A DNA stretch of 64,000 nucleotides from Siphonodentalium dalli (lineage: Eukaryota > Mollusca > Scaphopoda > Gadilida > Siphonodentaliidae), in contig CP136068.1 of NCBI GenBank assembly GCA_032622095.1, positions 187,603,309-187,667,308 of the forward strand, in the 5' to 3' direction. This document shows positions 3,141 through 48,300 of the stretch, one piece after another. The notes under the pieces were generated by a model that saw only the letters and a program-made list of their open reading frames with translations, searched no databases and had not been told where the DNA came from. Made by a program: the position numbers and the translations under genes. Positions within the stretch are counted from its first letter, which is position 1, and every line of letters begins with the position of its first letter.

Positions 3141-3348
3141 TCAAGTTGTGGGTTGTCGCTGTGGGTCATCACGATCCTCGGAAATACGTACCTCTCCATA
3201 GCTCAGCTTCTGCATAACCATTCGAACAATGAACCACGTCCAGACGATGTGGAGGATGAGAAGTAGGACAAGGAGTCCATTGAAAATATACCACGACATG
3301 AACATAGGTACGTGCAACAAACTCTCGTTCATCGTACTCGAAATGATC
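3141..3348 (-). CDS. CERS: CerS exon 9 (last exon, residues 282-350, stop)
   Basis: Acceptor TTTTCATTTCAG, then G (completing Trp282) and IISSTMNESLLHVPMFMSWY, IFNGLLVLLLILHIVWTWFI, VRMVMQKLSYGEVRISEDRD and DPQRQPTT, then TGA. It contains the luminal loop thought to influence acyl-chain choice (STMNESLLHVPMF) and the last membrane helix. The cytosolic tail is short and charged (SEDRDD). Two further copies of the acceptor lie upstream at 67-bp spacing. Confidence 0.93.
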
Positions 3349-6300
3349 CTGAAATGAAAAGAGATACCATGAAATGTACCGGGTGACCATGAAATGTATC
3401 GTACTCGAAATGATCCTGAAATGAAAAGAGATACCATAAAATGTACCGGGTGACCATGAAATGTATCGTACTCGAAATGATCCTGAATGAAAAGAGATAC
3501 CATGAAATGTACCGGGTGACCTCGTAACAGCTGGTGACCGGGCCTTTTCCGTGGCTTCACCATTTCTCTGGAATAAATTGCCTGCTCACTTGAGGGCACC
3601 CCAGTCGCTTAAAATGTTCACATCTAAACTTAAAACGCATCTGTTTCAACGTGTGTATGATCCGATCCACTGATGGTAGCCAGATGAGCAGCTCATTGTA
3701 CATAATTGATATTTCTTACTATGTTCTAATCATCATTATATATGTATTGATGTAAAGCCTAAGAGCTCTATGAGGATTTACGGCTTTAAACTAAATTTAT
3801 TTATTTATTATTATTTTATTAAATGGAGGTATTTATTTGCATTGAAATTCAGAGATTAGCACAAGCAACGTCCGGTAGGAATATAGAGGCTGGGAACATA
3901 TTTCTAAACTGTTATAGTGATATATATATTATGTAGGATACCAAATTAATGTGTTATAGCGATGCATATATTATGTAGGCTACCAAATGTGTGCACACAT
4001 TGCTCCAAACATCACAGTTATAGGCACAATTGTAAGCCTATTTGAATACTTCCACACATCTGGAGTCTTCATGATCAAGTTTTCATGATTTAGTTACAAC
4101 AAAATGTTATGTTAACCCTTTAGCGTTCAGAGAGCCCCAGAGCTTTTGGATTTTTTTCAACAAAAATATTGCATTATAACACAACAAAATTATCTTATTT
4201 TTAATGTTAACAATATTAAACATGGATGTTACATTATTAATATTTATGTTTTTGTTGGGTTTTGTGGTAGATTTTGTTCAATTTAATCGACATTTCATAA
4301 TAAAATCGTAAAAAAAACGAAAACTGCGTCGTCGCGGTGCTATTTTTCAAGCCGACTAAATCAATGTACTCGCAATTGTGATCTGTGTACAGCCATCTAA
4401 TATAGTTTTATTCTACAGATTTTTATTTACAAACTTTATTTTTATTTCTAATAGAATATTTATTTGACTTCTTTATGTTTTTGAGCTATTAATAATATGC
4501 AACTGAATTAAAAAGACCAATATCATGATTTGACCAGCGAAGCAAATAGAGTTCCGAGTCAACTCCAAGACACCTGCGCTTTTGCAGTGTTGGTGTTACT
4601 AAGGACGCCGTGTTGTTCTTACTCTTTTGGCCCTAGAAATGTTCTCAAATAAAACTGTCATTTGATTTGATTTTTCCCCTCATTCATCACAAGATCATAT
4701 AATATTTTATTTTAATACACTGAGTGAGCAATTTTGAGAATTCAATAAAGTTTTGATCGGAAAGTTCGACAACATTTTCGATTTTCTCTTCAGTTACACG
4801 TCCCAACATCACGCCAATTCAGCCCAATATTGTGGGCACGGGGATTGCCTGGATTAGTACCCAAATAAATTATGTTGTTAAAGCGCATTGACAAATACAT
4901 AATCTTGAGTATATTCTCCACACTATAATCGAAAAATACAAAGGAATGGACACATGATTCAATCCAAATGGTTTATTTAAAAAACACTCCCGCCAAGAAA
5001 CCCCCACTGATGACGTGCGCAAAAAATATGTACCTACAGTAAACACGTGTTGTTGGAAATTGGGGCGCACAATGGGGACTGTTATTTATCATGGCTATAA
5101 CTATTACCCATTCGGTAATTCATAAATGACATTCATTGCAAATTCAAACAGAATATATCTTAGATTTAGTATTAGTATCAATTGACCATTTATCGAATGT
5201 TGTCATTGAACTTATTGATCAGTTGATGACGATGATAAAATCTAGGAACCTTGTCGACGTCATAGCAGCAATGATAAAATACTGTAGCACAAATTTATGT
5301 GCATCGGCCGTTTTGTTCTCTCGTTTGATTAATAAAATTATTATTCTGCGCGCATTGACAATTACATAATCTTGAGTATATTTTCCACAATGTAATCTAA
5401 AAATACAAAGGAATGGACACACGATTCAATCCAAATGGTTTATTTAAAAAACACTCCCGCCAAGATACGCCCACTGATAACAAGCGCAGAAATTTGTACC
5501 TGCGAACACGTGGTGTTGGAATGTGGGGCGCACAATGGGGACTGTCATTTATCATGGCTATAACTATTAGCCATTGCCATTCGGTAATAAATAAATGACA
5601 TTCATTGCAAATTCAAACATAATATATCTCAGATTTAGTGTTAGTATCAATTGACCATTTATCGAGTGTTACCATTGAACTTATTGATCAGCTGATGACG
5701 ATGAAAACATCTCGGAACCTTGCCGACGTCAGCGCAACAATGATAAAATACTGTATAGCACAAATGTGCATCGATCGGCCGTTTTGTTCTCTCGTTTGAT
5801 TAATAAAATTATTATTCTCCGCGCATTAACACTGCCAAATACTCAAGTAAATTGGCCATATCATGATGTGAAAAATCAAAGAAATGACATTGTATAACAT
5901 TAGTTACTTTTATTTGAACACAAGAGTTCACGAGACAAACGCGGCTATTTTTAAATTGAAAGTGGCGCAAATCAATTCCGCATTTACCGCGAATTACTTA
6001 TCGGCACTGTCTTGTCATTTTATATTGAATATGATCGCTCAAAATTTCACTAAGAGAAAGCACTTTTCTCGATCGTAAGATACAATGTAGGCACGAAAGA
6101 ATTGTTTAATTATTAATTGCACAAGATATGTGCGGTGCGAATGTATTGACTGCAATGTCAAGGTCAAAAACCGGTGCGCCAAATTGAAGTAAACAAAAAA
6201 ACACGTGCGTTGTAATCGATGGCACAATGTTGACTAGTTTGGACTAATAATGCAGTTAATTGTAACTGAATTTACACGTAACTATCCAAGAGTTGATAGG

Positions 6301-9300
6301 CCACTTGATGATTTATTTTATGTTTCATTTCACCACGTAGCCATTGCTTAAAACATTAATATATCACCCAATTTCGTGATATGGTTTTCCGACAGAGAAA
6401 TTGAAACTGAAAGTCACATTGATCTGTTGATAAAACAAAACTTACCTTTTGTTTGTTTATTACATTTATTGTTATAAAATATAAATATAAAACCTACTAA
6501 ATATTCACCATACTATCATGCTTGGGGAGGGGGATTTACAACTCTGATGAACATAATTTCATAAATCAAGAGCCACATAACATTTAGTAATAATACATGT
6601 TTTTCCCCAAAAACTTTGACGTCATCAGAAAGTTCTGTTGGCTGGAGGTAATGACGTTAGTCATATTACTGTTGGGTAAAGGGTTAATTGATAATATTCT
6701 GTTCTTGAGTCGATCAATAAATCATATTCTATTCTATTCTATTCTTATTCTTAATTCTAATTCTATTCTATTCTAATTCTAATTCTAATTCTAATTCTAT
6801 TTCTATTCTATTCTATTCTATTCTATTCTATTCTATTCTATTCTAGACAAAATTTGGAAGCTCGAATGAGTCATGTCCGTTTAATGCAGTTTTTATTTTA
6901 CTTTGCATTTTAATTTTTTATATGTTATTTCATTTTTCTTCTTTTGGTTTAGATTTAATCAATAATCCTATATTATGATTTTTCAATTTGACCAAAGTTT
7001 CTGAAAATTGCCAAACAAATTCAGAATGACAAACAAATTAGCCAAAATAATTTTCTAGCCAGAGCAAAGCCTGATTATAATGCCTATCTTTACTTACCAG
7101 TATGGGAATATGAATAATCTATTGACTATCTTTACTTACCAGTATGGGAATATGAATAATCTATTGACTATCTTTACTTACCAGTATGGGAATATGAATA
7201 TTCTATTACTATCTTTACTTACCAGTATGGGAATATGAATATTCTATTACTATCTTTACTTACCAGTATGGGAATATGAATATTCTATTACTATCTTTAC
7301 TTACCAGTATGGGAATATGAATAATCTATTGACTATCTTTACTTACCAGTATGGGAATATGAATATTCTATTACTATCTTTACTTACCAGTATGGGAATA
7401 TGAATATTCTATTACTATCTTTACTTACCAGTATGGGAATATGAATAATCTATTGACTATCTTTACTTACCAGTATGGGAATATGAATATTCTATTACTA
7501 TCTTTACTTACCAGTATGGGAATATGAATATTCTGGTTATTATCCACACGACAGCAAACACAGTAAAGAACACCTCACAGAGTGTATTATGATTGGAGTA
7601 TTTGGCCAACTTTGCTGACTGAAATGTAGAAATGTTAATGTTAAATTCATCCCACACTATTCATTACTAACGTCAATGACAATTTGGATTACAGACTTTG
7701 ATGGATATGATTTCATTGGACACACATTGGTTTATATTTGCGAAATACGGCGAAATACAGATTTCAAAATGCTCAATACAAAATTTAGTCTTGTCTTTGA
7801 ACAAATTAAATCGTTAGCTGCAACGAATCAAAAACATTGATAAGAGATCGTCAATTAATCTTGTATTATCTAACCATATTAATGCGTCTTCTTTGTAGAC
7901 CACCACCAATGTGATCATACCAGAAGCAAACAGAACCAGATAAACAAAGATGAATAACTCCATTCAATGCCCTCATAGTAGTGAACATCAATACCAAATT
8001 TCATTCAGATCCGACAACTGGTGTTCGAGACATGTAGCTAATTTTCATCATAAATGGATTGATGTGAATGCGATGCATGCCTTAATATCCAATGAGAATC
8101 AGAATTGTCTTGATTCCCTTTAGAAACTCTATGGGCATTGCTGATTGCCGTAGTCAATTATGATGGCTGCACAATCAAGGATTGGGATTATATTACTCAA
8201 TACAAGGGTGTGGAATAAGCACAGAACACAAATTGTATCAAAATCTCAAATATTTTATAAAACTCCTGAGTCCTTGCAGACGGCACAAAATCCAGGCCTT
8301 AAAATCCGACGAGAATCGGAATCATGATTCTCATTTTGATTCACGTAAAAAGTCTTGATTCCCTAGAGAAACGTTATGTTTTGATTCTCGCAAAATTAGA
8401 TGGATTTTAGGGCCTGAAATCCGTGATGAAATATAAACCAAGCCTTGAAATAGTGTGTCTGTCATTTGCAAAATGAGGTCCCCAGAGGGTGAATTTAGTG
8501 ATGATACTTCACACAGCGGGATAGCATCACCAAATTCACCCTACGGGAACCTCATTCTGCTGAGGCCTCAACTGCTATGGGAGACCTAGGAACAGATTGA
8601 AGTTCCCCAGTTGAAGTGAGTGATGTTCACCCATTAGTTACCTCGATTATACATTTTATGTTCTGCAAATTAGGGGATATAGAAATTGAAAACAATGTTA
8701 ATTTGAGACTATAGATACTTTCTAGAAGATGAGGCTTAAGCAGAATGAGGTTCCCAGAGGGTGATTTGGTGATACTAGCACTACCTACCCTATTTTAAAC
8801 CCCCTACCTTAAAGTTTTTTTCATGGTCAAGAAAATCTATTGAATTTTTTCTCCAAAAATTTCATTAAACACAAAAAACACATTTAAGCATCTCAGAATA
8901 GATTGATTTCTAAGTAAAAGTATTGTGTAATATTAAAAGTTATACAAAATTAATCAAAAGTAGTTCTATGTCAATCTTGCAGAGTAAAATACGCACATGA
9001 AAAGTCATAAGAATATGTAAAAAAAAAAAAAAAAATTAATTTAAAAATTATTTTTTGTAACCCAAACCAGACATTTAATTTTGTTGGGCCTTATATATCT
9101 ACTCACAGCGAGCCACCCATCTGCTATATCATGGAGGAACAGGACCAACGTCCCGATTCTGTAGAAGTTAATGATGAACGAGAAGGACATTAACGTTATT
9201 GTTGATATATGATGCACGCTCATCTCAACATAGTCCTGAAAAGAAAAAAACATACACTGTTATTAAACATTATATTCATTTCAACATAGTCCTACATTAA

Positions 9301-12300
9301 AAAACATAAGTTATTGTTGATATATGATGTACACCCATGTAGTCATGAAAAGAAACAAAACATATATATGGCCGCTTGACCACATGAATTCTTTGGAAAC
9401 AATTGAATTCTGGCCAAAATTGTTAGATCAAATCTCAATTCCAACACTTAGAGACAAGCCTTGAAATAGTGTGTCTGTCATTTGCAGAATGAGGTCCCCA
9501 GAGGGTGAATTTAGTGATGCTACCCCGCATAGCGGGCTAGCATCACCAAATTCACCCTCTGGGGACCTCATTCTGCTTACACCTCAGCAGAATGAGGTTC
9601 CCAGAGGGTGAATTTGGTGATGCTAGCCCGCTATAGTTTTCTCCGTTCTCTGTCTATAAAAATGATGAATATGAATCGGAAGACCCCAGTCCCGAAATGC
9701 TTCTGTTAATTAATATTTATCTATAGTTGCTTCCACTAACATCACCGAAAATTTAAACGAAATCGACCATACCACTACATAGAAAACATTGTCTGAACTA
9801 CACTCAATTGTAAATATTAACATCTCGATTAGGAATACAACTATCGACGATAAACTAATACAAACGAGTTCGCCATCTAGCATCATTGCATTTAATTAAT
9901 ATATAAGAATGATGATGTGTGTTGTCAATTTGGATTAATATTTGTAAAAATAAAAACTTTGAGCATGATTATTCGCAATTTCTATTTGATCAACCAACCG
10001 GAGTGTTTCACATCACTTTTGTTTTCATCAATCTTTGCCAATTCCCATAGGGGATTGGCGACAGATAAAAGCAATGGGTAATATTACCCGTGTCTGGTGT
10101 CCCATTTAAATTGGGTCAATTCACGGTATTCAGGTAAACTGGCTTTATCACTCAGCATATAGAGATGATTATTGCGTGCACAATAATTGCCAATAATAAT
10201 CAATAATAGGCAATCTGATCACATTAAATTCTGATGACGGCCATGCATGCAAATAAAGTGTCTGTCATTGGCGGAATGAGGTCCCCAGAGCGTGAATTTA
10301 GTGACGCTACCCCACATGGTGGGCTAGCATCACCAAATTCACCCTCTGGGGACCTCATTCTGCTTAGACCTCATCTTCTGGGAAGTATCTAGTCTATTAT
10401 TTTTTAGTTACTTTTTCCCTAATTTACAGAAGATAAATTTCATAATCGAGGTGACTAATTAATGGGTGAACATCACCAACATCAACTGGAAAACTTCAAT
10501 CTGATCCTAGGTCTCCCATAGCAGTTGAGGCCTGATCAGAATGAGGTCCCTAGATGGTGACTGTGGTGATGCTAGCCAGCTGTGCGGGATAGTTTCACTA
10601 AATTCACCCTCTGGGAACCTCATTCTGCAAATGACAGACACACTATTTGCAGGTTTTATGACAGCTCATAAATGAACTCTTACTGCTATACAGCATGGTG
10701 ATGTGACGGCACATTAATGAACTCTTACTGCTATACAGCATGGTGACGTGACGGCACATTAATGAACTCTTACTGCTATACAGCATGGTGATGTGACGGC
10801 ACATTAATGAACTCTTACTGCTATACAGCATGGTGATGTGACGGCACATTAATGAACTCTTACTGCTATACAGCATGGTGATGTGACAGCTCATAAATGA
10901 ACTCTTACTGCTATACAGCATGGTGATGTGACGGCACATTAATGAACTCTTACTGCTATACAGCATGGTGATGTGACGGCACATTAATGAACTCTTACTG
11001 CTATACAGCATGGTGATGTGACGGCACATTAATGAACTCTTACTGCTATACAGCATGGTGATGTGACGGCACATTAATGAACTCTTACTGCTATACAGCA
11101 TGGTGATGTGACGGCACATTAATGAACTCTTACTGCTATACAGCATGGTGATGTGACGGCACATTAATGAACTCTTACTGCTATACAGCATGGTGACGTG
11201 ACGGCACATTAATGAACTCTTACTGCTATACAGCATGGTGATGTGACGGCACATTAATGAACTCTTACTGCTATACAGCATGGTGATGTGACGGCACATT
11301 AATGAACTCTTACTGCTATACAGCATGGTGATGTGACGGCACATTAATGAACTCTTACTGCTATACAGCATGGTGATGTGACGGCACATTAATGAACTCT
11401 TACTGCTATACAGCATGGTGACGTGACGGCACATTAATGAACTCTTACTGCTATACAGCATGGTGATGTGACGGCACATTAATGAACTCTTACTGCTATA
11501 CAGCATGGTGATGTGACGGCACATTAATGAACTCTTACTGCTATACAGCATGGTGACGTGACGGCACATTAATGAACTCTTACTGCTATACAGCATGGTG
11601 ATGTGACGGCACATTAATGAACTCTTACTGCTATACAGCATGGTGATGTGACGGCACATTAATGAACTCTTACTGCTATACAGCATGGTGATGTGACGGC
11701 ACATTAATGAACTCTTACTGCTATACAGCATGGTGATGTGACGGCACATTAATGAACTCTTACTGCTATACAGCATGGTGACGTGACGGCACATTAATGA
11801 ACTCTTACTGCTATACAGCATGGTGATGTGACGGCACATTAATGAACTCTTACTGCTATACAGCATGGTGATGTGACGGCACATTAATGAACTCTTACTG
11901 CTATACAGCATGGTGATGTGACGGCACATTAATGAACTCTTACTGCTATACAGCATGGTGATGTGACGGCACATTAATGAACTCTTACTGCTATACAGCA
12001 TGGTGATGTGACAGCACATTAATGAACTCTTACTGCTATACAGCATGGTGATGTGACGGCACATTAATGAACTCTTACTGCTATACAGCATGGTGATGTG
12101 ACGGCACATTAATGAACTCTTACTGCTATACAGCATGGTGACGTGACGGCACATTAATGAACTCTTACTGCTATACAGCATGGTGATGTGACGGCACATT
12201 AATGAACTCTTACTGCTATACAGCATGGTGACGTGACGGCACATTAATGAACTCTTACTGCTATACAGCATGGTGATGTGACAGCACATTAATGAACTCT

Positions 12301-15300
12301 TACTGCTATACAGCATGGTGATGTGACAGCACATTAATGAACTCTTACTGCTATACAGCATGGTGATGTGACGGCACATTAATGAACTCTTACTGCTATA
12401 CAGCATGGTGATGTGACGGCACATTAATGAACTCTTACTGCTATACAGCATGGTGATGTGACGGCACATTAATGAACTCTTACTGCTATACAGCATGGTG
12501 ATGTGACGGCACATTAATGAACTCTTACTGCTATACAGCATGGTGATGTGACGGCACATTAATGAACTCTTACTGCTATACAGCATGGTGATGTGACGGC
12601 ACATTAATGAACTCTTACTGCTATACAGCATGGTGATGTGACGGCACATTAATGAACTCTTACTGCTATACAGCATGGTGATGTGACGGCACATTAATGA
12701 ACTCTTACTGCTATACAGCATGGTGATGTGACGGCACATTTAATGAACTCTTACTGCTATACAGCATGGTGATGTGACGGCACATTAATGAACTCTTACT
12801 GCTATACAGCATGGTGATGTGACGGCACATTTAATGAACTCTTACTGCTATACAGCATGGTGATGTGACGGCACATTAATGAACTCTTACTGCTATACAG
12901 CATGGTGATGTGACGGCACATTAATGAACTCTTACTGCTATACAGCATGGTGATGTGACGGCACATTAATAAACTCTTACTGCTATACAGCATGGTGATG
13001 TGACGGCACATTAATAAACTCTTACTGCTATACAGCATGGTGATGTGACGGCACATTAATAAACTCTTACTGCTATACAGCATGGTGATGTGACGGCACA
13101 TTAGTCTGAGTTTAGTGTGCCTGTCATTTGCAGAATGAGGTCCCCAGAGGGTGAATTTAGTGATGCTATCCCGCACGGCGGGCTAGCATCACCAAATTCA
13201 CCCTCTGGAGACCTCATTCTGCTTAGGCCTCATATTATGGGAAGTATAAATAGTCTCAAATTAACATTATTTTTAGTTACGTTTTCCCACTTGAGAAGTT
13301 TCTATATAAGTTGCAGAAAATAAAATGCATAATCGAGGTGCCCAATGGGGGGAACTTCAATCTGATCCTTGGTCTCCCATAGCAGTTGAGGGCCTAAGCA
13401 GAATGAGGTCTCCAGAGGGTGAATTTAGTGATGCTAGCCCACTGTGCGGGATAGCGTCACTAAATTCACCCTCTGGGGACCTCATTCTGCAAATGACAGA
13501 CACACTAAACTCTAGATCAAGCCATGAATCTCTACTATGGCTACCGCCCGTACAGATCATATTCCACCAGTACAAAACCTTATGAATCGTGACGTTTGTG
13601 GTTAGGTAAATTGTCTTTAATTGATAGAAGTGTTTCCAGACAGGAGTCATTGATTTATATTTATTATTTTATACTCAGGAAACTATATAAAACTTGTTTC
13701 GGCCCAGGTCATAGCCTAAGCCCTAAGCCTTAACCCTTTACCCAACAGAACGGCCCTGTGCCAATGAATTCTCTTATATATGCGAGTCGACCATAGGTCG
13801 CCTCGCATATATAAGAGAATGCATTGGCTTAACACATTAAAAATTATAAAATTGTTAAAGAATGTAAGAAACGAGAGGCCGATCACGATCGGCAGATGTT
13901 TAACCCATACCTTGGCGATAGCGACTAGCCATATAAACTGATTATTTGTCAAAGATATGATCACAGGAATTAATCCATATATCAGTACCCAACTTGAAAT
14001 CAAAAGCTCCAATAATTTGTCTTAAGAAAGGGTTAAAGTATTTGGGTTGGGGAGGAGTAGTTTTAAATCTCATAACTCTGTCCCTATTCACACAAGGACC
14101 TCTCACTATGAGATCCAATGGTTTAGTGATTTCGGAGGACATGTTTAGGAGTTTAAGTTAACTCATTGGAAGCAAAAGTGATAAATCCCTATCTTTGCCA
14201 CTTTTGACATGCCAGATATTCAAAATTGATTATTCACTTCTAAAGAGAAATTATAATTGCTTAGAACGACATATATGTAGGGGATTCCATCTCGTATTTA
14301 AATGGTACTTTAATTACACCCCCCCCTTCCCCCATTCTCCCCAGTTATTTGTTTATCAAACATGGACAGATATAAAATCAGATCTGACCTGTGTATTAAA
14401 TAAGATTAAGTGTTTCATAACAGGGGTGTATGGTTTTCAAAAATATATGTAGTTTATACAATTCAAAAGTATTATCTATATAATGTTATACAGACATAAT
14501 ATGATGGGGATGCTGGCCCCTATGACCACTAAATCGTTCATATAAAAGAAAGTAAGTTAGCCCTCATTTGAATGGTTTCACACATTACAATGTTTTACAA
14601 GTAGCTTGGGCACTAAAAGCCACAACCTTCAATGTTAATCTTCTAAGTGCTCTGTGGCCCCTAAAATTCAATCAACCATGAAAATGTGAACAAATGGGAA
14701 AATAAGGTTCTTGGAAATACTAACATCTATCATATTGATTTTCAAAACAAGTCATCACTTACAATAGTCATCTATATTTATCTGCCTGTTTCCCATTGCA
14801 TAGATAAATCATATTGGCTATCAGCTGTTGTTTTAATTTCAAATTGAAAGCACGTGTCTGAAGGGGTAATATATTTTTCAAAAATCAATTAATCAGTCAA
14901 TACCAAAATTGATAGAAGTGAATAGTGTGCAAAGATACCCAATAGATATTAAGAGATATGAGGAAGAGTCCATGTACATTATAGCATGTGTCTATGGAAA
15001 CCTTGGAAAGGGTTAATTATTTTTGAAGCAAATTAATGGAATTTAGAAGACACTTATATAGGTGAGGGGGGCCCTTATCTCACCCTGTAATGAAATTTCA
15101 AGAATAGGAGAAACACCAGTCTTGTGCTGCCATTAATCAATTTGACAGTTAGAATAAACAAACAGCCAGCCACCAGTGTTGTTTATCTTGCTTGACCCAC
15201 CAGAGCTCTGTATCATATGTCATCACTCATTTCATAACATATTTCACTTGGAATGACAACATCTATAAAAATCCTCTCATATACTCTGGATGTTGGATGA

Positions 15301-33300: not shown

Positions 33301-36300
33301 GGAATTGTATCTGACGGGCAGGGAATTTTATCTGACGTGCAGGGAATTTGCCTTTTAATCTTGTGTTTTCGTAACTAGTGACAGAACAGCATTAAAAATA
33401 TAATGTCATTTTTCAGATCACACAACAAGATTCAAACTTCACTAGAAAGGATTAATTCCTGTGCCAATGGTTATTTTACATATGGGAATTTATACGGAAG
33501 ATATGTGATGTATTTTTATGCTAAAACACACACATAAGGCTATACAGGTATTTCTGCAATCAAGATTTCACCCAATTTGTGGGATCCCCAAATTTATTTA
33601 CTTCAAATGTTATCATTAAAGGCCCACTTAATTTTCTAAGACTTCCCCGTTATTTACCCCAGAATGCATCATAATTCACAACCAGAATGAAATTAAGCAC
33701 AGAACACACATCGTTACCTTGACAAAAACAACATGTTCACAGTTTATTACACTGGATAAGTTGATAATACAATGTTTTGGAGCTTCATCTTTCAAATGGC
33801 ATATAACATGGAAAATGATGTATATGATGTGATATGGGGATTAAACGAGAGGCCGATCACGATCGGCAGATGTTAACCCATCCCTTGGCGATAAAAATTT
33901 ACTATGATCGGAATCATAAATGAGAGTTTTGGTGTTGAATTATATGAGTATACTGTATGTACTATTATAGACAAATGTACATAACACAAATATTGGAATG
34001 TATGGGTCACCGGCATTTATATAAGAGAATGCACTGGTACAAGATATGTAATGCTAAACCACCACAGCCTTGGGTTAAATGTGAAAGGTGTGACCTGAAC
34101 ATGGAATACTTGGGTTAAGAGAGTCCAAGTCTACTGCTAATATCATGTGATGTTTATTGTTGAATCTTTATTTTAAATTAGATACCATAGCCTTCTTTAT
34201 CAGATTATTTGCACATTGGCATAAGAGACATTAGAAAATGATATAGCCTTATCAATAGCTAAGTAGTCCAAAGGCATGGCATAAAATTGGTGAATTGGAT
34301 TTAATGTTGCTCCAAACAGATTTACAGGTACATAACAAGATTTTGGACCGATTTAACCCTTTACCCAACAGAAGGGCCCTGTGCCAATGCATTCTCTTAT
34401 ATATGCGAGTCGACCATAGGTCGCCTCGCATATATAAGAGAATGCATTGGCTTAACACATTAAAAATTATAAAATTGTTAAAGAATGTAAGAAAAAAATG
34501 GTAAAAAAAGATTTTTTTTAGGCCAATGCATTCTCTTATATATGCGAGGCGACCTATGGTCGACTCGCATATATAAGAGAATGCATTGGCACAGGGCATA
34601 ACTGTAACTATCACAATGTGGTCAAGGAGCCGGTTCCAATGATATCCATATTTGTATGGTTCTATTGAGACAGACCGAAGATATTTTAGGCTGTTGAAGC
34701 TTTATTTGGCCGGTTTTGGCCGGTTTGTTGGGTAAAGGGTTAAATCTTTGGAGAAATCACCCGATTCAATCAAAGCTTCAATTTTAAGCAAATTCAGTCA
34801 CAATACTGTCACATACAGTAATGCCCTAATTAATCGACTGCTTATCCACAGCAGAATTATGGGTAACTTTTCAGGATTTAGTCGGAAATATGTCTTGTTG
34901 CCATTCATCGGAAAGCTCTCCCCGAGATCAACCAATCCCAACTATAGTTTCAACAGGAAACCAAGAAAACCAAAATGTCGAAAAATGTCATCACGGACAG
35001 ACAGACAGACAGACAGTAAGACGACCAAAAAAGATAATATGTCCCGTGTTTTTAAAAGGTCGAATAAAAATGGCATACTAGTACTTTTGAATTTGGAACA
35101 GAGGCCTGTATTCAGCCCGTAGTGTTAACAAGGAAAATCCCTGTCAAAATAATGTCAATTTATCAAAGGTGAAAAAAAATGTAACTAACTACCCATAGTG
35201 TCCATTTATCAAAGGTGAAAAAAAAAACATTTCCTTTGTGAGGCCTAATGCGAATACAATAAAAATAATTGGCATGAATGATGAACGAAGTATCCCCATT
35301 GTACAGAGCGATCTATGAATCAGAGGATGAAGATATGATTGAATAGATTCACCTTGCGGCCAGAGGACAACGGTATGAATTATTAACTTATCTACCATCA
35401 GTATCAGTAGTAACATTGTTATGGTATGACCTCAATGCTCCTTCAGGCTATAACCCTTTACCCAACAAACCGGCCAAAACCGGCCAAATAAAGCTTCAAC
35501 AGCCTAAAATATCTTCGGTCTGTCTCAATAGAACCATACAAATATGGATATCATTGGAACCGGCTCCTTGACCACATTGTGATAGTTACAGTTAGCCCTG
35601 TGCCAATGCATTCTCTTATATATGCGAGTAAAAAAATCTTTTTTTAACACTTTTTACCATTTTTTCTTACATTCTTTAACAATTTTTAATGTGTTAAGCC
35701 AATGCATTCTCTTATATATGCGAGGCGACCTATGGTCGACTCACATATATAAGAGAATGCATTGGCACAGGGCCCTTCTGTTGGGTAAAGGGTATAAGCT
35801 GGGGCGACAACAAGTTACTTATGGTTTTATTACCAAAGCTTTTTTTGTAGGTTATAATGATGCATAACTGTAATCTGTGACCCATTTGATCCCCGACACA
35901 GATGTTTATTTGTTTGTTTTATTTGGGTTATAACTGTAATCTGTGACCCATTTGATCCCGGACTCAAATGTTTTTTGTTTTTTTTTAGGGTCATCATCAA
36001 TCCTGCATTTAGTGTGTCTGTCATCTGTAGAATAAGGTCCCCAGAGGGTGAATTTAGTGACGGTCACCAAATTCACCCTCTGGGAATCTCATTCTGCTGA
36101 GGCCACAACTGCTATGGGAGACCTGGGATCAGATTGACGTTCCCCAGTTGATGTTGGTGATGTTCACCCATTAGTCACCTCGATTATGCATGTTATCTTC
36201 TGCAAATTAGGGGATCTAGAAACTTTCAAGAAGGGAAAGAGAGCACTGCCAGGTTTGGTTTAATAAACCTGTTTGCAAAGTACAGTAATGCTCTAAATAA

Positions 36301-39300
36301 TCGGCCCCTTAACCACAGCAGAATTATGGGTAACTTTTCAGGATTTAGCCGGAAATATGTCTTGTTGCCATTCATCGGAAAGCTCTCCCCGAGAGCTTTC
36401 CGATGAATGGCAACAAGCCATATTTCCGACTAAATCCTGAAAAGTTACCCATAATTCTGCTGTGGTTAAAGGGCCGATTATTTATTACTGTAGTTGTCAT
36501 CTTTCAATTACTATCAAAGAAAATTGGCTATCAGGTACCAAACCCCAATTCAAATTTGTGAGGTAATAAACTAACAGAATATGAGTCCAATAGTTAAATG
36601 CAAAATATCATCTGGAAAACAAGAACATGGAAAAGTTGAAAGGCCCACAACTCCGGAAAAAATCATCGAACCAAACCCAAATTTGACCGTGACCTGTATT
36701 TTTGTATGACTGAGCCACATACAAAGTTTAGTTGTGATAAAATAATCTAAACTCAAGTTATCATCCGGAAATCAAAATGTTGATAACAGACAGACTGATT
36801 ACATACATTTGTAATACGTACCGTTTTTTCAAAAGGGCATATAAAAAGTAACTAAAAACAACGTTAATTTGAGACTATAGATACTTCCCAGAAGATTAGG
36901 CCTAAGCAGAATGAGGTCACCAGAGGTTGCATTTAGTGATGCTAGCCTGCTATGTAGGGATAGCATCACTAAATTCACCCTCTCGGGACCTCATTCTGAA
37001 ATTATCTCCTCTCCATGTTGAGCTACAGTGTCAGTGACACTTTCATTTTGTTGATTCAATGTTTGTATGATAATAAATTTGTTACTTGTACATTATTGTA
37101 ACTGCATGTTTTAAAAACTACATATTCTTAATATGGCTTGATAAGAGTTAAGACATGTATTACTTAATATGTGTGCCACTAGTGTATTCAAACATGAAAC
37201 CAAACGTCAGGTGGGCTCTCTGGACAAAATACCCAATAAACATAACAAATAGCATATACTTTGAAAATTTCTATTTACTAACACAAAATTATTAACCCTT
37301 TACCCAACAGAATGGCCCTGTGCCAATGCATTCTCTTATATATGCGAGTCGACCATAGGTCGCCTCGCATATATAAGAGAATGCATTGGCTTAACACATT
37401 AAAAATTATAAAATTGTTAAAGAATGTAAGAAAAAATGGTAAAAAAAGTTTTTTTTTAGGCCAATGCATTCTCTTATATATGCGAGGCGACCTATGGTCG
37501 ACTCGCATATATAAGAGAATGCATTGGCACAGGGCATAACTGTAACCATCACAATGTGGTCAATGAGCCGGTTCCAATGATATCCATATTTGTATGGTTT
37601 TATTGAGACAGACCCAAGATAATTTAGGCTGTTGCAGCTTTATTTGGCCGTTTTTGGCCGGTTTGTTGGGTAAAGGGTTAATGACCAACACAAACCAATT
37701 GATTCCTGTTTTTTTGACAGGTACGAGAATATGAGTTATTTCCAGAGTTGGATGGATGGACGGATAAGAAAAAAGAAAACAAGCATTGTGCAGTTGGGGA
37801 AGTGCATTCTCAATAATGTTTGCGTTCTCAGTATGTGCTAAACAAGAGGTGGGATTTTAAACCAAGTCCAATAACTCCGGTAAAAATATCCGGCCGGACC
37901 TGGCTTGCGAACTCATTCTAGGTAATGGTCAGGTGAACTCATATACCAAAATTCTTTGAAATCCATTGACATTTGTTCAAGTTACATGTACCGGGTATGA
38001 CTCTTACAAATTCGGGACGGACAGACGGACGGAAGTTTACGGAACCCATTCCTATATCCCACGGAAATTTCATTTGGTGGGGGATAAAAATAATTGTGGT
38101 TTGGGTTTCCATACCGACCCTATTTTAAACCCCCTACCCTAAAGTTTTTTTCATGGTTTTCAAGAAAATCTATTTAATTTTTTCTCAAAATTTTTCAAAA
38201 AACACATTTAAGTATCTCAGAATAGGTTGATTTCTAAGTAAAAGTTATTGTGTAATATTAAAATTTATACAAAAATAATCAAAAGTTATTTTATGTCAAT
38301 CTTTCAGAGCAAAATATGCACATGAAAAGTCATAAAAATATGTCAAAATAAAAATATTAATTATCAAAATAAAATTCAAGCCTACCTACTGACCCTATTT
38401 TTTTTTGGCCTGTAACCCAAACCAGACATTTAATTTCCTTTGGCCTAGGCTGTATCACCAGTGACTTTTACTGAAAATCCTAATTGAATTTTGAGAATTT
38501 CACAACCCTACTTTTACTCTGCCCCCTACTCTTATTTGATTTTGGGATAATTTCCACCCCCTTACTTTTATTCTGCACCATTCTTTTATTTGGATCCCGA
38601 GAGTATTTGTGTCTATAATCACCACTGTAAGCCTTGATGATGACTAAGGCCAAAAAAAAAACATCTTAGTTTCCGATACACTGCTTGGCTGAGATTTTAT
38701 TTTCTTGCCTCCCTCAATTTTTTATTTCAATTTTCTCCAGAAGGCTAGTCTACATGTATAGTTACCTGTTAAGAGTATCAATGTGAATATTTATTGTTTT
38801 TTCCCCAATCCCGAAAGCAAAAATAAGTCAGTTATTAAGCTCAACATTGGTAGAGATCTTACTGCAGACTGAATGAATTCAAGGGACAGAATGTTTTTAT
38901 CCAATGCTTGACTCATTTTCAATATACATTGATCTACCATATACCATGGGACCGAGACTACACTATTATATCACTTACGGCTGAAACAACTGAAAGGTTT
39001 AAAAGAAAAAAATAAGTAAAAAAAAATAAAAATCCCTGCCTGTCTGGAAAATTATCCCAGTGTTATCGGAAACCGAGAATTTTTTTTTTTTGGCCTAATA
39101 CGTGCACAGGTATAAAGGTAAAAAAAACAATCACACACTTTGTGAATCTTTTGGGGTAATTGAATATTATGTTTAAAGTAGTCCATTGTTGGGCAATAGA
39201 TTACATCTACTTATCACATATGAGGTAATAGCTGTTTGAGATTTATACATTAGGACAGGTTATTACATGACTGACATCAATGTAATGAGCATGCGCAATA

Positions 39301-42300
39301 TGCAATAATGGCTTCATTGTTTGGGGAAACAAATTATTCAAAGGACTAAGTACATGTGTACATATGCAGAATGAGGTCCCCAGAGGGTGAATTTAGTGAC
39401 GCTATCCCGCATAGCGGGCTAGCTTCACTAAATTCACCCTCTGGGGACCTCATTCTGCTTAGGCCTTCAACTGATATGGCAGACCTAGGATCAGATTGAA
39501 GTTCCCCAGTTGAAGTTGGTGATGTTCACACATTGGGCACCTCAATTATGAATTTTATCTTCTGCAAATTAGGGGGATATAGAAACTTCCTAGAAGGAAA
39601 ATGTAACTAAAAACAATCTTAATTTGATGCTATAGATACTTCCCAGAAGATGAAGCCTAAGCAGAATGAGGTCCCCAGAGGGTAAATTTAGTGATGCTAG
39701 CCCGCTATGCGGGATAGCATCACTAAATTCCCCCTCTGGGGACCTCATTCTGCAAATGACAGACACACTATTTGCAGGCTTGCAGTGGAGACAAATAAAA
39801 ATACAATACTTATTTAACTTACAAAAATCAACTGCTCTTAAAGGGGACTGTACACTAAATCCGGCCATTTATGGCACCATCTCCTATTAATGGTAATTCT
39901 AATGAAAATGAATTAATATTAAACTCCAGTCATAAATTCATTTTCATTATACCAAGTTATTTTATATTGTTCATAAAGTAAATGAGTGTATTTTGCACTC
40001 ATCCATGGCTCCAATTCATTCATTTGTTGTTATATTATGTTGTATGTTGAGTATGATAGGAGATGGTCCCATAAATGGCCTGATTTAATACACAGTACCC
40101 CTTTAACTTAGACCAAGTCTTGGTCCACAACAGCTTGGGATATCGGTAGGATGATGCTGTTTTGGGCCGAGTGCGATACCGTTACTCTTAAGTAGCTTAA
40201 CCATTTCAGTGCCAGGGGCCGATCTCATCGGCCATAATTTACGTTCTGTAATAGATTTTTTTTTTTCCTTTTTGGGTTGAATTTTTTTTGGGTATACTTA
40301 AGCATGCTATAGCGAATTTAAAAACAAACTGGATAAAACCTTAGGGGCATGTTATAACTCAAAACTATCACCAAGTATTCATAGTAATAATTTTGATGCC
40401 CATGAAAAACGTGAGATTCCCTGGCACTAAACCTACAATATAAGTCTGTTAAAGAATATAAGAAAAAATTATTAAAATTGTAAAAAATAATAACAAATGA
40501 TGAAAAATTGTTAGGCCAATGCATTCTCTTATATATGCGAGGCGACCTATGGTCGACTCGCATATATAAGAGAATGCATTGGCACAGGGTATATGGGTTG
40601 ATACAAAAATCGGACCTGGCACTGAAAGGGTTAAGACAGGTTAATAATACATGCAATACCAATGAATGGTAATGGGCAGGTGAGATATGAATGGCTTCAT
40701 TGTTTGGGGAAAGAAATTATTCAAAGGAAATAAGCATGAATCAACAATAACAGAGCTGGGGGGGGGGGAAATCCCCTGCCTGCTGATCTGAATTTAACCA
40801 AATAATACTTTTAGGCTTATGACAATCCCCTGCCTGTTAATCTGAATTTAACAACATAATACATGTACTTTTAGGCTTATGACAATCCCTGCCTGTTAAT
40901 CTGAATTTAACCACATAATACATGTACTTTTAGGCTTATGACAATCCCTGCCTGTTAATCTGAATTTAACAACATAATACATGTACTTTTAGGCTTATGA
41001 CAATCCCTGCCTGTTAATCTGAATTTAACCACATAATACATGTACTTTTAGGCTTATGACAATCCCTGCCTGTTAATCTGAATTTAACAACATAATACAT
41101 GTACTTTTAGGCTTATGACAATCCCTGCCTGTTAATCTGAATTTAACCACATAATACATGTACTTTTAGGCTTATGACAATCCCTGCCTGTTAATCTGAA
41201 TTTAACAACATAATACATGTACTTTTAGGCTTATGACAATCCCTGCCTGTTAATCTGAATTTAACCACATAATACATGTACTTTTAGGCTTATGACAATC
41301 CCTGCCTGTTAATCTGAATTTAACCACATAATACATGTACTTTTAGGCTTATGACAATCCCTGCCTGTTAATCTGAATTTAACAACATAATACATGTACT
41401 TTTAGGCTTATGACAATCCCCTGCCTGTTAATCTGAATTTAACCACATAATACATGTACTTTTAGGCTTATGACAATCCCTGCCTGTTAATCTGAATTTA
41501 ACAACATAATACATGTACTTTTAGGCTTATGACAATCCCCTGCCTGTTAATCTGAATTTAACCACATAATACATGTACTTTTAAGCTTATGACAATCCCC
41601 TGCCTGTTAATCTGAATTTAACCACATAATACATGTACTTTTAGGCTTATGACAATCACCTGCCTGTTAATCTGAATTTAACCACATGATACTTTTAGGC
41701 TCATGGCAAACTGCAAGCCTTATAATATTGTGTCTGTAATTTGCAGAATGAGGTCCCCAGAGGGTGAATTCAGTGATGCTATCCTGCACAGTGGGCTAGA
41801 TTCACAAAATTCACCCTCTGGGGACCTCATTCTGATTAGGCCTTATCAAATTAACATTGTTTTAGTTACATGTACTTTTTTTTATCCTTCTGTTCAGTTT
41901 CTAGGCCACAAAAATACCTGTTTTGGGTTTCCCTTCCTACCCTAGAAAAACGTGCCTACCCAAAACTTTTTATTGGACTGTTGACATATATTTATTTTGT
42001 TTTCAGTTTTCAGTGGGAAGGGCATAGAAAGATTGTTTTATTAGTCTTGTGCTCTGACTAATTCATGATAACAATATCTAGTATTGAACCTTTCAATTAA
42101 TCTGAATTGTGAAGCTTTCTAGATTGAATTGTCAATGGAATTCAGAATAAAATAAATTAAAACAAGAGGTGTGCACTCGAGTGCTAGCATACCCCCACCG
42201 TGGCAAATTCAACCCGCATTATCCATAAACCCAACAAAAAAGATTTTTAGCTTTAAAGAAAAATTCGGACTAATATATCGATATGGTGTCACAAGAAGCT

Positions 42301-45300
42301 TGTACAGAAAAAATTATTCAAATTGGTTCATATAAGTTATTAAGTCTGACAGAATTTTCTAAGTCAAAATAAGTCGAAAATGAAGTGTAATATTACGAAA
42401 AACAGTCTGAGCCAATCCCTAGCCGCATCATGTAGAGAGGGTATTGTGAGAAGCATGTATACCAAAAATTATTGAAATCGGTTCATATTTGTTAAAGTTA
42501 TTAATTCGGACAGAATTTTCTAAGTCAAAATAACTCGAAAATGAGGCGTAACTTTAAAAAAAAAAGTTGGACCGAACCGCAATTAGCATCATGCGGAGAG
42601 GCAGTCCTAAGGAGATTGCATACAAAAAATTATTGAAATCGAATCATAGTTGTTCGAGTTATGAGGTCGGAAGGACGGACAGACGGACAAACGGAGGGAG
42701 AAATCGTGACGGACGCAGTCAATCCAGTATACCCCCCATTTTCTTCGAAAGTGGGGGTATAAAAACAAAAATTACCTACCTACCATAATCATTTAAACCA
42801 TGTAACCCTAAACACAGGTATTATTTTGTTTGGCCCTATATCCCCTAATTTACAAAAGATAAAATGCATAATTAATGTGACTAATGGCTGAACATCACCA
42901 ACTTCAACTGGGGAACTTCAATCTGATCCTACACACATGTATGTAGGTCTCATATACATGTATAAGAGAATACATTGGCCTAACAATATTTACTGTGACC
43001 TTGTAAACAAGTGCATTCTCTCATATATCTGAGGCCACCTATGGGAGACTCACATATATAAGAGAATACACTGGCACAGGATCTTTAATGCTGCACCAGC
43101 GCAGCTCCCGCCATGAAAGGGTTAAACTCATTTTGAGATATTGAAAGTTGCTACATTTTTTTCAATATGTTTTTGTGGGTATAAAATTGTAGAAGAAAAA
43201 ATTCTAAATCCTAAAAAATGTGTACCGTAGGGGTATGAAAAGGGGTCAGAATAGAAGCCTATAAAATGACAAATATTATTTTCCTTGGCCTATTAAATGA
43301 CCAAACTATGTTAAAGGTATTCCGCAAACCAGTATAATGTCAATAAATGCCCCATGACCAAGTAAATGTTTATTTAATTCAATGAGAACAGGAGGGGTAG
43401 ATGCTGATAAAGCAGATATTACGATATAGATAGTTTTAATATAGATATGCCTAAACAAATAATATAACTATAGATAAAATTGTTGACTGTTTGTCCTGAG
43501 CACCATAAAGTTTCACCTGCAACAGATAGTGTGTAGGATGCGAATGCTCAGATAAAACATTTGGCCTAAACGAAATAGTGATGTTGCTGGTGGTTAAATA
43601 GAAACAAACGTGGACCCGATTTTCTGTGCACAGCTGCCTCACATGACAATTAAATCAAATACAAAACAATTGTCAGAATCCAGCAATAAACGTATTAAAC
43701 AGTTAGGCCAATATAAAACGATCGGCCGATCACGATCCGCACATGTTTAACCCATACCGGCGATAACAATTAGCTATTTTCATAAATCCTTACACCAACC
43801 TTTTCAACAATTCACACCTTACTATTAAAGCTACTCGATTCGATTAAGCACCCCTCAGTTACTATTTATTTGGCTTCGAGGGGTAAAAATATTTTATTCA
43901 AATCGAGGAACCCATTCATCAAAGCTCAGAGTAAGCAGATATAAATTTTTAAAATCTATTATCTTTAACCACCTGGAATATTTAGTGGCCCTATAAAGGT
44001 CGATGAAGATGGATAACTCTAAATTCAAGTGGCTTTTTTGTGTCAGATATATGACAAAGCAGCAAAATTTCATTGTACAAAATGTTGATCAATAACAGGT
44101 TTTGGGCAATTTTATACTATAGTGGACTGTGGTTAGCATTATTTTTGGGCAATTAATCGATTCTGATAACTGAAGCAAATTTTTTTTTAAACTGTTGTTG
44201 TTGGAATCTGATGATATGGGGACCATCAAATCGGATTGGGTACCTTTAAGTTCACAAGTGGCATAAGACTTATTGGGCACCTTCCATATGAACATGGATA
44301 TGGCATTTGATTCCAACCTATTAAGTCAGTTTAAAATAGATATATAGTCTTATAGAGCTCAGTCCATAGTCAGGTGGGTTAATTTTGTTAATATTTAAAA
44401 GCAATTAAACCAAATGACCCTCTCTATACAGGTTATGGGTGTGTTATCATAAACTATGACTTGAAATATAATATAATCAATGACAAATATTTGAGTTATT
44501 ATATGAGATAGCAAGGGGTTGATCTTAATCACACTAATGAACTGATCAAAATAGTCTATAAATGCACGTATATGGATTTAGAAGCCCACACAATAAGTCA
44601 GTCTCAAGAATACAAGCAACATTATTATTATCCTGCACCCCAAATGCAATAGAGGGAATTTCAAAATAAGACATTTCCTCTAATGTTTTTAGAAATCCTT
44701 ACTGAACCTGGCTAAAAGTGAAAGATATAATTTAATATCTGCCTATCAGATATCGTGTGTCTATGGAATGGGTTAATTTTAATCCCAAAATCCATGCAAG
44801 ACCAGAGAGCTATATATGTGAGAGTTGATAAATCCTGAGAAGACACTGTCCACACACTATGGAAATGCAATAAATTTCATTATCAATAATAGAGATTATC
44901 TCTAGTCTCTCTTACTGATACCACAGTTATAAGCTGCTATAGTTATATATTGTAAGCAAATCTCAAATCTGTTCAATTCTTAGTTAAAAAGGGGCCATAA
45001 TTCTGGTATAAAAAACAGGATCTGACCCATATTCAAACTTGATCTGTATTTTGAGTTGATAACTCAGATAACTCAGATGAAAACTGGTAGATTTATTGAA
45101 GCATGCATGAATTATATGTCAAAGGGCCATAACTCCATTAAAAATAATCTGATCAAACCCATATTCAAACTCGATCTGTATTTTGAGCTCTGAACTCGCA
45201 TACCAAATCTGGTTCCGATTAGATAAAAACTGTTTGAATTATGGCAGAATGCGTGAATTCTAAGTCGAAAAAGGCCCATAACTCTGTAACAAAAACTCGG

Positions 45301-48300
45301 ATCAAAACAAAATTCGAACTCGATCTGTATATACAAAATTTGGTTCCGATCGGATAGAAAATGTTAGAGTTATCGCATTTCATGAAGTGTCTACGGACAG
45401 ACAAACGGACGGACAGACAGACGGACGAACGACGAGTGGTCAATCCGGACGACACTATGTTTACCATACTATGGTATGGGTAAACATAAAAATGCTTGAT
45501 TTACATCCCCTCCCGACCTTATTTACATCCCCTCCCGACCTTATTTACATCCCCTCCCGACCTTATTTTTAGTCCCAAAAAAATTTCTCTGCCTTAAATC
45601 TTTCATGACAGGAGTTGCGCTGGTGCAGCATTAAAGACCCTGTGCCAGTGCATAGGAAGAATAAAATAAAAAAAATAAAAATTTGTCCTCCCGTCCCCAT
45701 TTTTCTTAAAAAGTTGGATGTAAATCTACCAATTTATTTATATTGGCCTGATGTTATATAGGTTTGCTGCCGCCCGCCCGGACTCCTGCCCGTCAACAGT
45801 CCGTCCCAAGTTAATTATTAGAGACAGTTGAGGGGAGATAATACCTGTAGCATCTTTATGGGAGCTGCGATGGCCGAGTTGTTAGCATGTTCGACTACTG
45901 GCCAGAGGTTTCGCTTTGACCCCTGATCGATTTACTTCGATCATCGACAAAAGAAAAGTTGGGAGTTCTGAGCTTGCCTACAAAAGTACTGTGTACATGT
46001 ATGTATGTATGCCTCGCTGAGGTGTCGTTAAGCGTTAATCCTCTCCCACCCGGTGTAATGGACAGGGATGATACTGACTCCTGACATAACCGGTATTTAC
46101 AATAAGGTAAGATAAGATAATGTACTGTTAGAACACTAACTATACATGTAAGATAAGGTAGGATAAGATAAGATAAGATAAGGTACTGTTAGAACACTAC
46201 TATACATGTAAGATAACATAAGATACCGTACTGTTAGAACACTACTATACATGTAAGATAACTAAATATGTACTGACCTGCATTCGCTGAATTTCTGTAC
46301 ATCTGAGATACTTTTCGATTTCCTCATCAAGAAGAACCATCTCTGCACTTTACGTACTGAGAAGTCTGTTTGCTTAGCCAGAGCCTGAAAGAGACCAAAA
46401 CAAACTATAACCATCTCTGTACCCAACGTACCTTCGCAGGACCCTAATCCATCTGCAATTGTTTTATGTTTTGATTTGTCTGTCATCTGCTTTATATATG
46501 TATGTGTACTGTGTAACATGTTGATGCGATATTATAAATATTGTATGTGCTAGAGCTATGCATGTTAACAATTGTACTGGTATGATATCATTTCCGATTT
46601 GCTGTGCAGCAGGCCCTAAAATACGACGAGAATCAGAATCATGATTCTCATTTTGATTCTCGTAAAAAGTCTCGATTCCCTGTAGAAATGCTATGTTTTA
46701 CTTCTTGTATAAATAAAATTTTATGGACTTTAAGGCATGCGCAGGTTTGTGTATAACTTCAGAGAGTGTCTCAGTATCAGAATTCAATCATTTCTAGTAT
46801 ACATGTACATATACATTCATCAGATATTAAGTACACAAGACGACTATTTTTGAATTGGAATTCTATATTGTACACATAATGCAAATCAAACTACAACTAC
46901 TAGTATGCTCTATTTGATCGACCCTCCTTAACGAGGTTGACCACCGGTACTACCGCAGTACTCGACCGCATGCGGTAAACCACAGTCAATTATACTGTCG
47001 CCGACCATGGTACCACACTGGATAATTTGTTTATTTTTGGCTTGTCGTGATGCTGCATTGATGATACAATTGCAAATATCGGTCAGTGACCAACATCGTA
47101 TGTTGAATAAAATGTAAACAATTTATTAATTGAATTTACGAAATTTATTTTGTGTATTGTTAACTTGAAAATAAAGATCAATTGAAAACTTGGTGATTGA
47201 AAATGGTACAGGATGTCGAACGCAGACATGTTAAACAAATTTATAAAGTGAACTTGCAGTTTTTGAAGACGCAAAAAAAATTAACATGGTACAGGAATTT
47301 AATGCTGCACCAGCGCAGCTCTCATCATGAAAAAGTTAATAAATAGATAGAACCGCATTAGTGTCTGGATTTTGACGAAATTATCGCACGAGATTTGTTG
47401 GCGGAGCGATACCTCGAGTGCGGGACACTCATGCAGTTCTATTTTTATTACATATCTCCGTATCATAGTAAGTTGACTCACAATCGTACATCTCCGGTAC
47501 AGAAAATGCAAATTTAATTGAGTTTTAACACTGAATGAAATAGTTCCGTCGACAGATTGCACTAGTGCGATTCTGAGAATTATCACACGCCTGGAAACTC
47601 GTGCGATCATGCAAATTACGTTGATAGATAAGTAATAAAGTGTAATACAGTAATGCCCTAAGTAATCGACTTCTTAACCACAGCAGAATTATGGGTAACT
47701 TTTCAGGATTTAGTCGGAAATATGGCTTGTTGCCATTCATCGGAAAGCTCTCGGCGAGAGCTTTCCGATGAATGGCAACAAGCCATATTTCCGACTAAAT
47801 CCTGAAAAGTTACCCATAATTCTGCTGTGGTTAAGAAGTCGATTACTTAGAGCATTACTGTAGCTGTACATGTAGTAATATTAATCATATTATATGGAAT
47901 GTTTAAATAATAATAATTACCTGCACAGCTTTGTCGGTCGGCTTGCTTTTTTTGTTATATGAATCTTCTAAAATCTTATTTTTAGGAACTACTACACGGC
48001 GCGCTTTGACACCAATATATTTTGCTAATGGAATAAATAAGTACCTGTAACGAGAATATTTTAATATAATATAACATCTCTGATGAATGGAAAAATAGTT
48101 TACCAAAAACAAATAACATTGGAATCTCTAAGACAGTGCAGAATTATTTATGTGTAACATCCGAAAAAGAAAATTACCTGTAACAACGCCATGCTGAATC
48201 AATGGATGAAGTTAGTAACTTTCCCCGCTGGACAAAACAAGTGTCCATTGGCACCGCGGTGTATTTGCTGTTCGGCCGCGGTGTCAGAGTTTGTAACTGC

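What the first reader, a model, noticed from the sequence alone, without database searches (positions are those of the whole stretch)
3333..46280. Splice junctions of one gene are repeatedly turned into minisatellites
In the CerS gene, six of eight introns carry a tandem array made from, or starting exactly at, an exon-intron boundary: exon 4 donor (x6), exon 5 donor side (x8) and acceptor side (x3), exon 6 acceptor (x2), exon 7 acceptor (~x3, decayed), exon 8 donor (x11) and exon 9 acceptor (x3); a further array sits about 20 bp from the exon 3 donor. Four of these arrays include coding nucleotides, so the direction (exon to intron) is clear. Random minisatellite formation would not favour junctions this strongly. 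Possible causes are a local duplication mechanism acting at splice sites (for example R-loop or splicing-linked breaks), or retention there because of an effect on splicing.
Basis: partly seen in the sequence, partly recalled or inferred. Interest (0 to 1): 0.9.

Follow-up and report, generated by a model that had tools for sequence, protein, structure and literature searches.

The report
Tandem-duplicated splice junctions ("mirages") in CerS
In one animal ceramide synthase gene, short pieces of DNA spanning exon-intron borders have repeatedly been copied in tandem into the introns, a kind of repeat already described and named in amphioxus, here seen at several borders of the same gene.

Summary
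The minus strand holds an intact nine-exon ceramide synthase gene (54263..3141, 350 aa). At five of 16 splice junctions exon nucleotides are copied in tandem into the adjacent intron (donors 4, 8; acceptors 6, 7, 9). Arrays lacking exon copies abut donor 5 and acceptor 5, and perhaps donor 3. Five of eight introns are touched, not six. Five of 32 TRF arrays contain a junction (one, donor 5, by only 8 exon nt); seed-level nulls expect 0.3-1.2 (P 2e-5 to 7e-3), but a plain coverage null expects 3.1 (P 0.19). The gene was chosen for its oddity, so P values are exploratory. The structure is known: amphioxus "mirages", minisatellite-like duplications of exon-intron boundaries (PMC3087553, PMC3902484). 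Best account: recurrent tandem duplication, tolerated because the exon-proximal copy keeps frame and splice site, then array expansion. Using an internal copy would truncate the protein in 16 of 17 cases tested, so a role in protein diversity is unlikely. Whether junctions are genome-wide hot spots stays open; the host species could not be identified and the genome search did not complete.

The parts
3141..54263 (-). Ceramide synthase gene, nine exons, intact 350 aa CDS
54088..54263 (-). Exon 1 (from ATG); no junction array at donor 1
47921..48044 (-). Exon 2; no junction array at either side
46278..46384 (-). Exon 3 (homeodomain part)
46102..46275 (-). Array of 45-61 bp units downstream of donor 3; TRF span 46102-46262, partial first copy (CAGTAC) starting 2 nt inside the donor; suggestive only
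24419..24476 (-). Exon 4
24262..24431 (-). Junction array at donor 4: 28 bp x6, 13 exon nt per unit, GT kept in 4 of 6
20307..20489 (-). Three 38-nt repeats ending 3 nt before exon 5; no exon nt, AG not copied
20253..20303 (-). Exon 5
20005..20260 (-). Array starting at donor 5: 8 units of 27 or 35 bp; GTAAAT at the genuine site and before three internal units; TRF span overlaps 8 exon nt, exon copy not significant
18192..18284 (-). Exon 6
18253..18384 (-). Junction array at acceptor 6: about 67 bp x2, over 30 exon nt copied, AG kept
9107..9235 (-). Exon 7
9236..9354 (-). Two decayed copies of acceptor 7 (exon-like starts 55 and 109 nt upstream); AG kept in one
7512..7618 (-). Exon 8
7084..7534 (-). 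Junction array at donor 8: about 41 bp x11, GTAAGT in all 11 copies
3331..3521 (-). Junction array at acceptor 9: 67 bp x3, 18 exon nt per unit, AG kept in all
3141..3348 (-). Exon 9 with stop codon

Best explanation
These are mirage-type minisatellites. At each affected junction a short segment (28-67 bp) spanning the border was duplicated in tandem by an ordinary local error (replication slippage or microhomology-guided repair), then expanded by slippage or unequal exchange. Shown: border-spanning copies at five junctions, of different degrees of decay, at donors and acceptors, in a gene with an intact CDS. Inferred: such duplications persist because the copy next to the exon still provides the correct splice site and reading frame, so new copies fall into the intron, while duplications inside exons are purged. 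Extra splice sites are by-products that the spliceosome usually passes over in favour of the exon-proximal one. A further junction bias of formation or retention is likely in this gene, cause unknown.
For: Exon-edge copies at 5 of 16 junctions. Decay differs: TRF match percentages 97 (acceptor 9, donor 8), 94 (acceptor 6), 92 (donor 4), and acceptor 7 so decayed that TRF missed it, so separate events rather than one. Extra splice dinucleotides partly lost (donor 4: 2 of 6 copies; acceptor 7: 1 of 2 extra copies) as neutral by-products would be. Internal-site use truncates in 16 of 17 cases. Break features: at donor 8 exon and intron share GATA near the join; at acceptor 9 the join carries an insert that repeats TACATTTCATGGT found 20 nt further on, like a templated insertion (sequence; inference). 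Published mirages have the same anatomy, occur at both 5' and 3' boundaries, hold AG/GT in many but not all units, and are reported as apparently not disturbing splicing.
Against: No transcript data, so normal splicing is assumed. The coverage null does not reject chance (P 0.19). Tolerance alone predicts no excess at junctions over other intron positions, so it does not explain the seed-level excess. Eight of 16 junctions have nothing. The donor-8 microhomology needs three later changes.
Confidence: 0.75

Rival explanations
1. Splice junctions in this lineage are true mutational hot spots for tandem duplication, for example through R-loops or breaks at exon-intron borders linked to transcription. 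(Not exclusive of the best explanation: it would be the cause of the bias.)
For: Seed-level excess of about 4- to 16-fold (5 observed against 1.16 to 0.31 expected), at donors and acceptors alike, with differing decay; several unrelated amphioxus genes have the same structures in print.
Against: One post hoc gene; coverage null P 0.19; no R-loop or break data; no control gene in the window.
Confidence: 0.3
2. Retention: extra donor or acceptor copies are kept because they aid splicing of long, repeat-rich introns or tune expression through unproductive splicing.
For: 17 of 20 internal copies at the five junctions keep GT or AG; donor 8 keeps GTAAGT in 11 of 11; the longest intron (21.8 kb) is touched, though only at the suggestive donor 3.
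Against: Young homogenised copies would keep sites anyway; donor 4 and acceptor 7 lost some; introns 1 (6.0 kb), 2 and 7 have none; the acceptor-5 repeats and five of eight donor-5 units lack the splice site or are not preceded by it, counting the genuine one out.
Confidence: 0.12
3. Chance plus ascertainment: arrays are common in these introns, some fall at junctions, and copies of exon sequence are easier to recognise.
For: 32 TRF arrays cover 19.5% of intron; expected 3.1 of 16 junctions by coverage, P 0.19; interspersed repeats avoid junctions (4.5% masked within 50 bp against 39.8% overall); the gene was picked for its oddity; one of the five hits (donor 5) rests on 8 exon nt.
Against: Coverage is driven by a few giant arrays; an array grown from a unit not spanning a border pushes the border away instead of covering it. 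Arrays up to 500 bp only (28): 1.4 expected, P 0.009; unique sequence only: P 1.9e-4 to 0.004.
Confidence: 0.25
4. Assembly artefact.
For: The authors of the amphioxus globin paper report that one mirage appears aberrantly assembled in the draft genome (passage).
Against: Distinct arrays with different units, internal variants and higher-order structure.
Confidence: 0.03

Closest known systems
Amphioxus mirages (Adh3, globins BflGb6 and BflGb9, troponin C, PGBD5, other loci)
   Same: Minisatellite-like tandem repeats spanning exon-intron boundaries at 5' or 3' ends, units 10-160 bp, many but not all units with AG/GT (PMC3087553 section 16 read whole; PMC3902484 passages)
   Different: Here five junctions plus two or three abutting arrays in one gene; the passages I read give one boundary in each of two globin genes and two arrays in PGBD5 (the 10-72 bp unit range quoted for Adh3 suggests several there). 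Host unknown here; splicing and length polymorphism untested here.
Human IFI6 (G1P3) minisatellite with multiple splice donors (Turri et al. 1995)
   Same: A minisatellite supplying repeated donor sites (title seen in a reference list; details recalled)
   Different: One donor only and short units (both recalled). The paper itself is not held.
Internal tandem repeats at human exon-intron boundaries in segmental duplications (PMC2812944)
   Same: Minisatellites of about 30 bp units at exon-intron boundaries (passages)
   Different: There they can form novel introns or alter exons; here the CDS reads through nine exons without any copy being used.
Intron gain by tandem genomic duplication (AGGT proto-splice sites)
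   Same: Same class of event: short tandem duplication carrying splice signals (listing; discussed in section read)
   Different: No new intron is needed to read the gene here; copies lie inside existing introns.

Membership tests
Mirage (exon-intron boundary minisatellite) | Tandem repeat unit spans an exon-intron boundary | tested here: met
   5 of 16 junctions
Mirage (exon-intron boundary minisatellite) | Both 5' and 3' boundaries can be affected | tested here: met
   Donors 4, 8; acceptors 6, 7, 9
Mirage (exon-intron boundary minisatellite) | Unit length in the published range 10-160 bp | tested here: met
   28, 41, about 55, 67, 67 bp
Mirage (exon-intron boundary minisatellite) | Many but not all units keep AG/GT | tested here: met
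   17 of 20 internal copies
Mirage (exon-intron boundary minisatellite) | Internal units homogenised, edge units divergent | tested here: inconclusive
   Donor 8 and 4 internal units alike, last units differ at their end; no formal test
Mirage (exon-intron boundary minisatellite) | Normal splicing of the transcript | not testable with these tools
   No RNA data
Mirage (exon-intron boundary minisatellite) | Length polymorphism, somatic instability | not testable with these tools
   One sequence only
Mirage (exon-intron boundary minisatellite) | Host is a cephalochordate (all cases in the passages I read) | tested here: inconclusive
   Repeat patterns found no match in genome contigs or viral contigs, collections of bacteria, archaea and viruses, nor in paper texts; genome search did not complete
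Intron gain by tandem duplication | A new intron is created inside a formerly continuous exon | tested here: inconclusive
   CDS intact with copies inside existing introns, so no copy is needed as an intron border; ancestral intron positions not tested
Ceramide synthase (CerS) | TLC domain with Hox-like domain, full-length match to CerS6 | tested here: met
   (residues 7-334 of 350 aligned); enzymatic activity not testable

The most novel reading that the evidence does not exclude
In this lineage exon-intron borders are genuine hot spots where short tandem duplications arise or persist repeatedly, so that single genes accumulate mirages of different ages at a third to a half of their junctions. 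If the host is not a cephalochordate, the process is wider than the cases I found in print and a standing source of new splice sites and introns.
Probability: 0.3. Interest if true: 0.75.

Novelty: new member of a known kind. Interest (0 to 1): 0.5.

Why it matters
Border-spanning duplications offer a direct route to new splice sites and introns, a model proposed for amphioxus globins. A gene with several at different stages of decay gives a within-gene series for asking whether junctions are hot spots, how the splicing machinery picks the right copy among as many as 11 donors with the same GTAAGT, and how such arrays decay. It also warns gene predictors, because internal copies look like real splice sites.

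Tried and rejected
Host identification: exact scans with repeats of the window found nothing in viral contigs or genome contigs, which are not collections of animal genomes, and six repeat strings were found in no paper text. From memory the repeats look molluscan rather than amphioxus, but no call supports this.

Self-BLAST as an array detector missed short-period arrays such as donor 4, so TRF was used. For the record, one search gave 19 clusters inside the gene (plus one outside), 4 of them containing a junction (donors 5, 8; acceptors 6, 9). TRF in turn misses the decayed acceptor-7 copies and the acceptor-5 repeats (found), and may equally miss decayed arrays elsewhere in the introns.

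Copies of CerS exons elsewhere in the window: at E 0.05 the only match away from the exons' own junctions was a 15-nt hit to exon 6 at 63345-63359, E 0.015. Creation of a new exon or intron was set aside because the CDS is intact without it. The donor-5 internal sites were not evaluated for their effect on the protein: the pattern used did not match them. No Rfam match at gathering scores and no tRNA (ARAGORN, bacterial settings) in the window. Papers looked at and set aside: earthworm metallothionein PMC12783039 (passages; repeats in intron 1) and Plasmodiophora PMC6823432 (passages; mitochondrial).
Full report
What is there. The minus strand of the window carries a complete ceramide synthase gene from 54263 to 3141, nine exons, all eight introns GT-AG, 350 codons. 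The product has a TLC domain (E 1.5e-46) and a Hox-like homeodomain (E 6.4e-6) and aligns over residues 7-334 with human CerS6 (8qz6, E 3.7e-79).

Junction arrays. I read the sequence at the junctions and tested each of the 16: up to 45 nt of exon edge were aligned to the adjacent 400 nt of intron and the score compared with 1500 intron segments away from exons. Five junctions have an exon-edge copy: acceptors 6, 7 and 9 and donor 8 at the floor of the test (P 0.0007), donor 4 at P 0.013 (only 13 exon nt are copied, but the 28-bp unit recurs six times in register). The remaining 11 give P 0.11 to 0.96. Three of these 11 do have an array beside the junction: donor 5, where eight units of 27 or 35 bp begin at the donor (TRF's span runs 8 nt into the exon); acceptor 5, where three 38-nt copies end 3 nt short of the exon; and donor 3, where a 45-61 bp array is 15 bp away by TRF and a six-base CAGTAC match suggests a partial first copy reaching into the donor. 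Introns 3, 4, 5, 6 and 8 are touched, five of eight rather than six.

Is it more than chance? TRF (period at least 15, score at least 50) gives 32 arrays in the gene covering 9773 bp; five contain a junction (donors 4, 5, 8; acceptors 6, 9). Random placement with at most 40 coding bases per array gives 0.44 on average and never 5 in 4000 trials; allowing a distance of 20 bp, 6 observed against 0.66, P 2.5e-4. Treating each array as one seed unit in a collapsed gene gives 0.58 expected (P 3.4e-4), or 1.16 with a two-unit footprint (P 0.0068). Leaving out donor 5, P for four is 0.003. Using only the 17 arrays whose unit has no copy elsewhere in the window gives 0.31 and P 1.8e-5 (all). Masking interspersed repeats, which avoid junctions (4.5% of bases within 50 bp against 39.8% overall) and so concentrate unique sequence there, leaves 0.51 expected (P 1.9e-4) or 1.02 (P 0.004). 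Against this, if junctions are simply random points, 19.5% of intron lies in arrays, 3.1 of 16 are expected and 5 is unremarkable (P 0.19). I prefer the seed-level null because an array grown from a unit that does not span a border cannot come to cover it, but that is an argument and not a measurement. The gene was chosen because it looked unusual and no second gene in the window serves as control, so all P values are exploratory.

Age and turnover. TRF match percentages run from 97 (acceptor 9, donor 8) through 94 (acceptor 6) and 92 (donor 4) to the decayed acceptor 7, which TRF does not report. The arrays therefore look like separate events over time. Donor 8 shows higher-order structure of 41, 43 and 40 bp units. 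Of 20 internal copies at the five junctions, 17 keep GT or AG: donor 8 10 of 10, donor 4 3 of 5, acceptor 9 2 of 2, acceptor 6 1 of 1, acceptor 7 1 of 2. Splicing to those 17 would end the protein early in 16 cases and give an altered, longer protein (363 aa) in one (acceptor 9, minus 67). The three internal GTAAAT sites at donor 5 were not evaluated. The extra sites are therefore unlikely to be kept for protein variants; unproductive splicing as regulation is not excluded.

How it most likely works. Step 1 (inferred): a local tandem duplication spans the border. The sequence gives hints: a shared GATA near the donor-8 join (needing three later changes), and at the acceptor-9 join an insert repeating TACATTTCATGGT from 20 nt further on in the same unit, as templated insertions do (contexts). 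Step 2 (follows from the anatomy): the exon-proximal copy keeps frame and splice site, so the change is tolerated. Step 3 (inferred): slippage or unequal exchange expands the array into the intron. Step 4 (unknown): why borders in this gene are hit so often. Mutational hot spot, chance with ascertainment, and retention remain open, in that order of my belief.

What is known. This anatomy is in print. PMC3087553 (passages including part of the abstract, the second part of the reference list, and section 16 whole) describes minisatellite-like tandem duplications of exon-intron boundaries in amphioxus globin genes, calls them mirages after earlier work on Adh3, notes that both 5' and 3' boundaries are affected, that many but not all units have AG/GT signals, that regular splicing seems undisturbed, that copy number differs between two haplotypes, that other amphioxus loci have them, and that the mechanism is unclear. 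PMC3902484 (passages) adds PGBD5 and cites troponin C. The original Adh3 paper and the human IFI6 minisatellite paper are not held; I saw only their citations. PMC2812944 (passages) surveys internal tandem repeats in human segmental duplications, including ones at exon-intron boundaries. Beyond that survey, the listings of my searches showed no title or abstract start announcing a genome-wide count of border-spanning repeats against a positional null; this speaks only of those listings in an open-licence library.

Verdict. A real and striking cluster of a known kind of structure. New here is the number of borders in one gene, as far as the passages I read show, and possibly the host, which I could not identify: the genome search did not complete and repeat patterns matched nothing. 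That the host is an animal is inferred from the protein.

Noticed in passing
window 31647-32183 and 20530-21220: Interstitial telomere-type repeats: a degenerate TTAGGG tract of about 90 units, and a 61-bp minisatellite whose units carry 3-6 TTAGGG copies.
   Followed up: no
whole window, e.g. 9486-9615, 13132-13488, 39368-39751: Abundant short inverted-repeat element with AGAATGAGGTCCCCAGAGGGTGAATTT ends (38 matches with up to 3 mismatches), MITE-like; no match in viral contigs.
   Followed up: partly
whole window, e.g. 241-457, 21842-22249, 25027-25243: Second palindromic element with TATATAAGAGAATGCATTGGC arms (52 matches with up to 1 mismatch, 44 of them in 22 opposite-strand pairs 48 nt apart).
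   Followed up: partly
window 10659-13103: A 45-bp minisatellite of 54 copies at 98% match in intron 6, not at a junction; its minus strand has a 698-codon open frame, which a unit length divisible by three allows.
   Followed up: no
window 56428-56607, minus strand: Short PHD-finger-like reading frame, below Pfam's cut-off (18.5 against 24 bits, E 0.002), upstream of the gene; coordinates by reading.
   Followed up: partly
window 53240-53420, 47680-47850, 23380-23520: Long fold-back elements (arms such as ACTTTTCAGGATTTAGTCGGAAATATGGCTTGTTGCCATTCATCGGAAAG) seen on reading.
   Followed up: no
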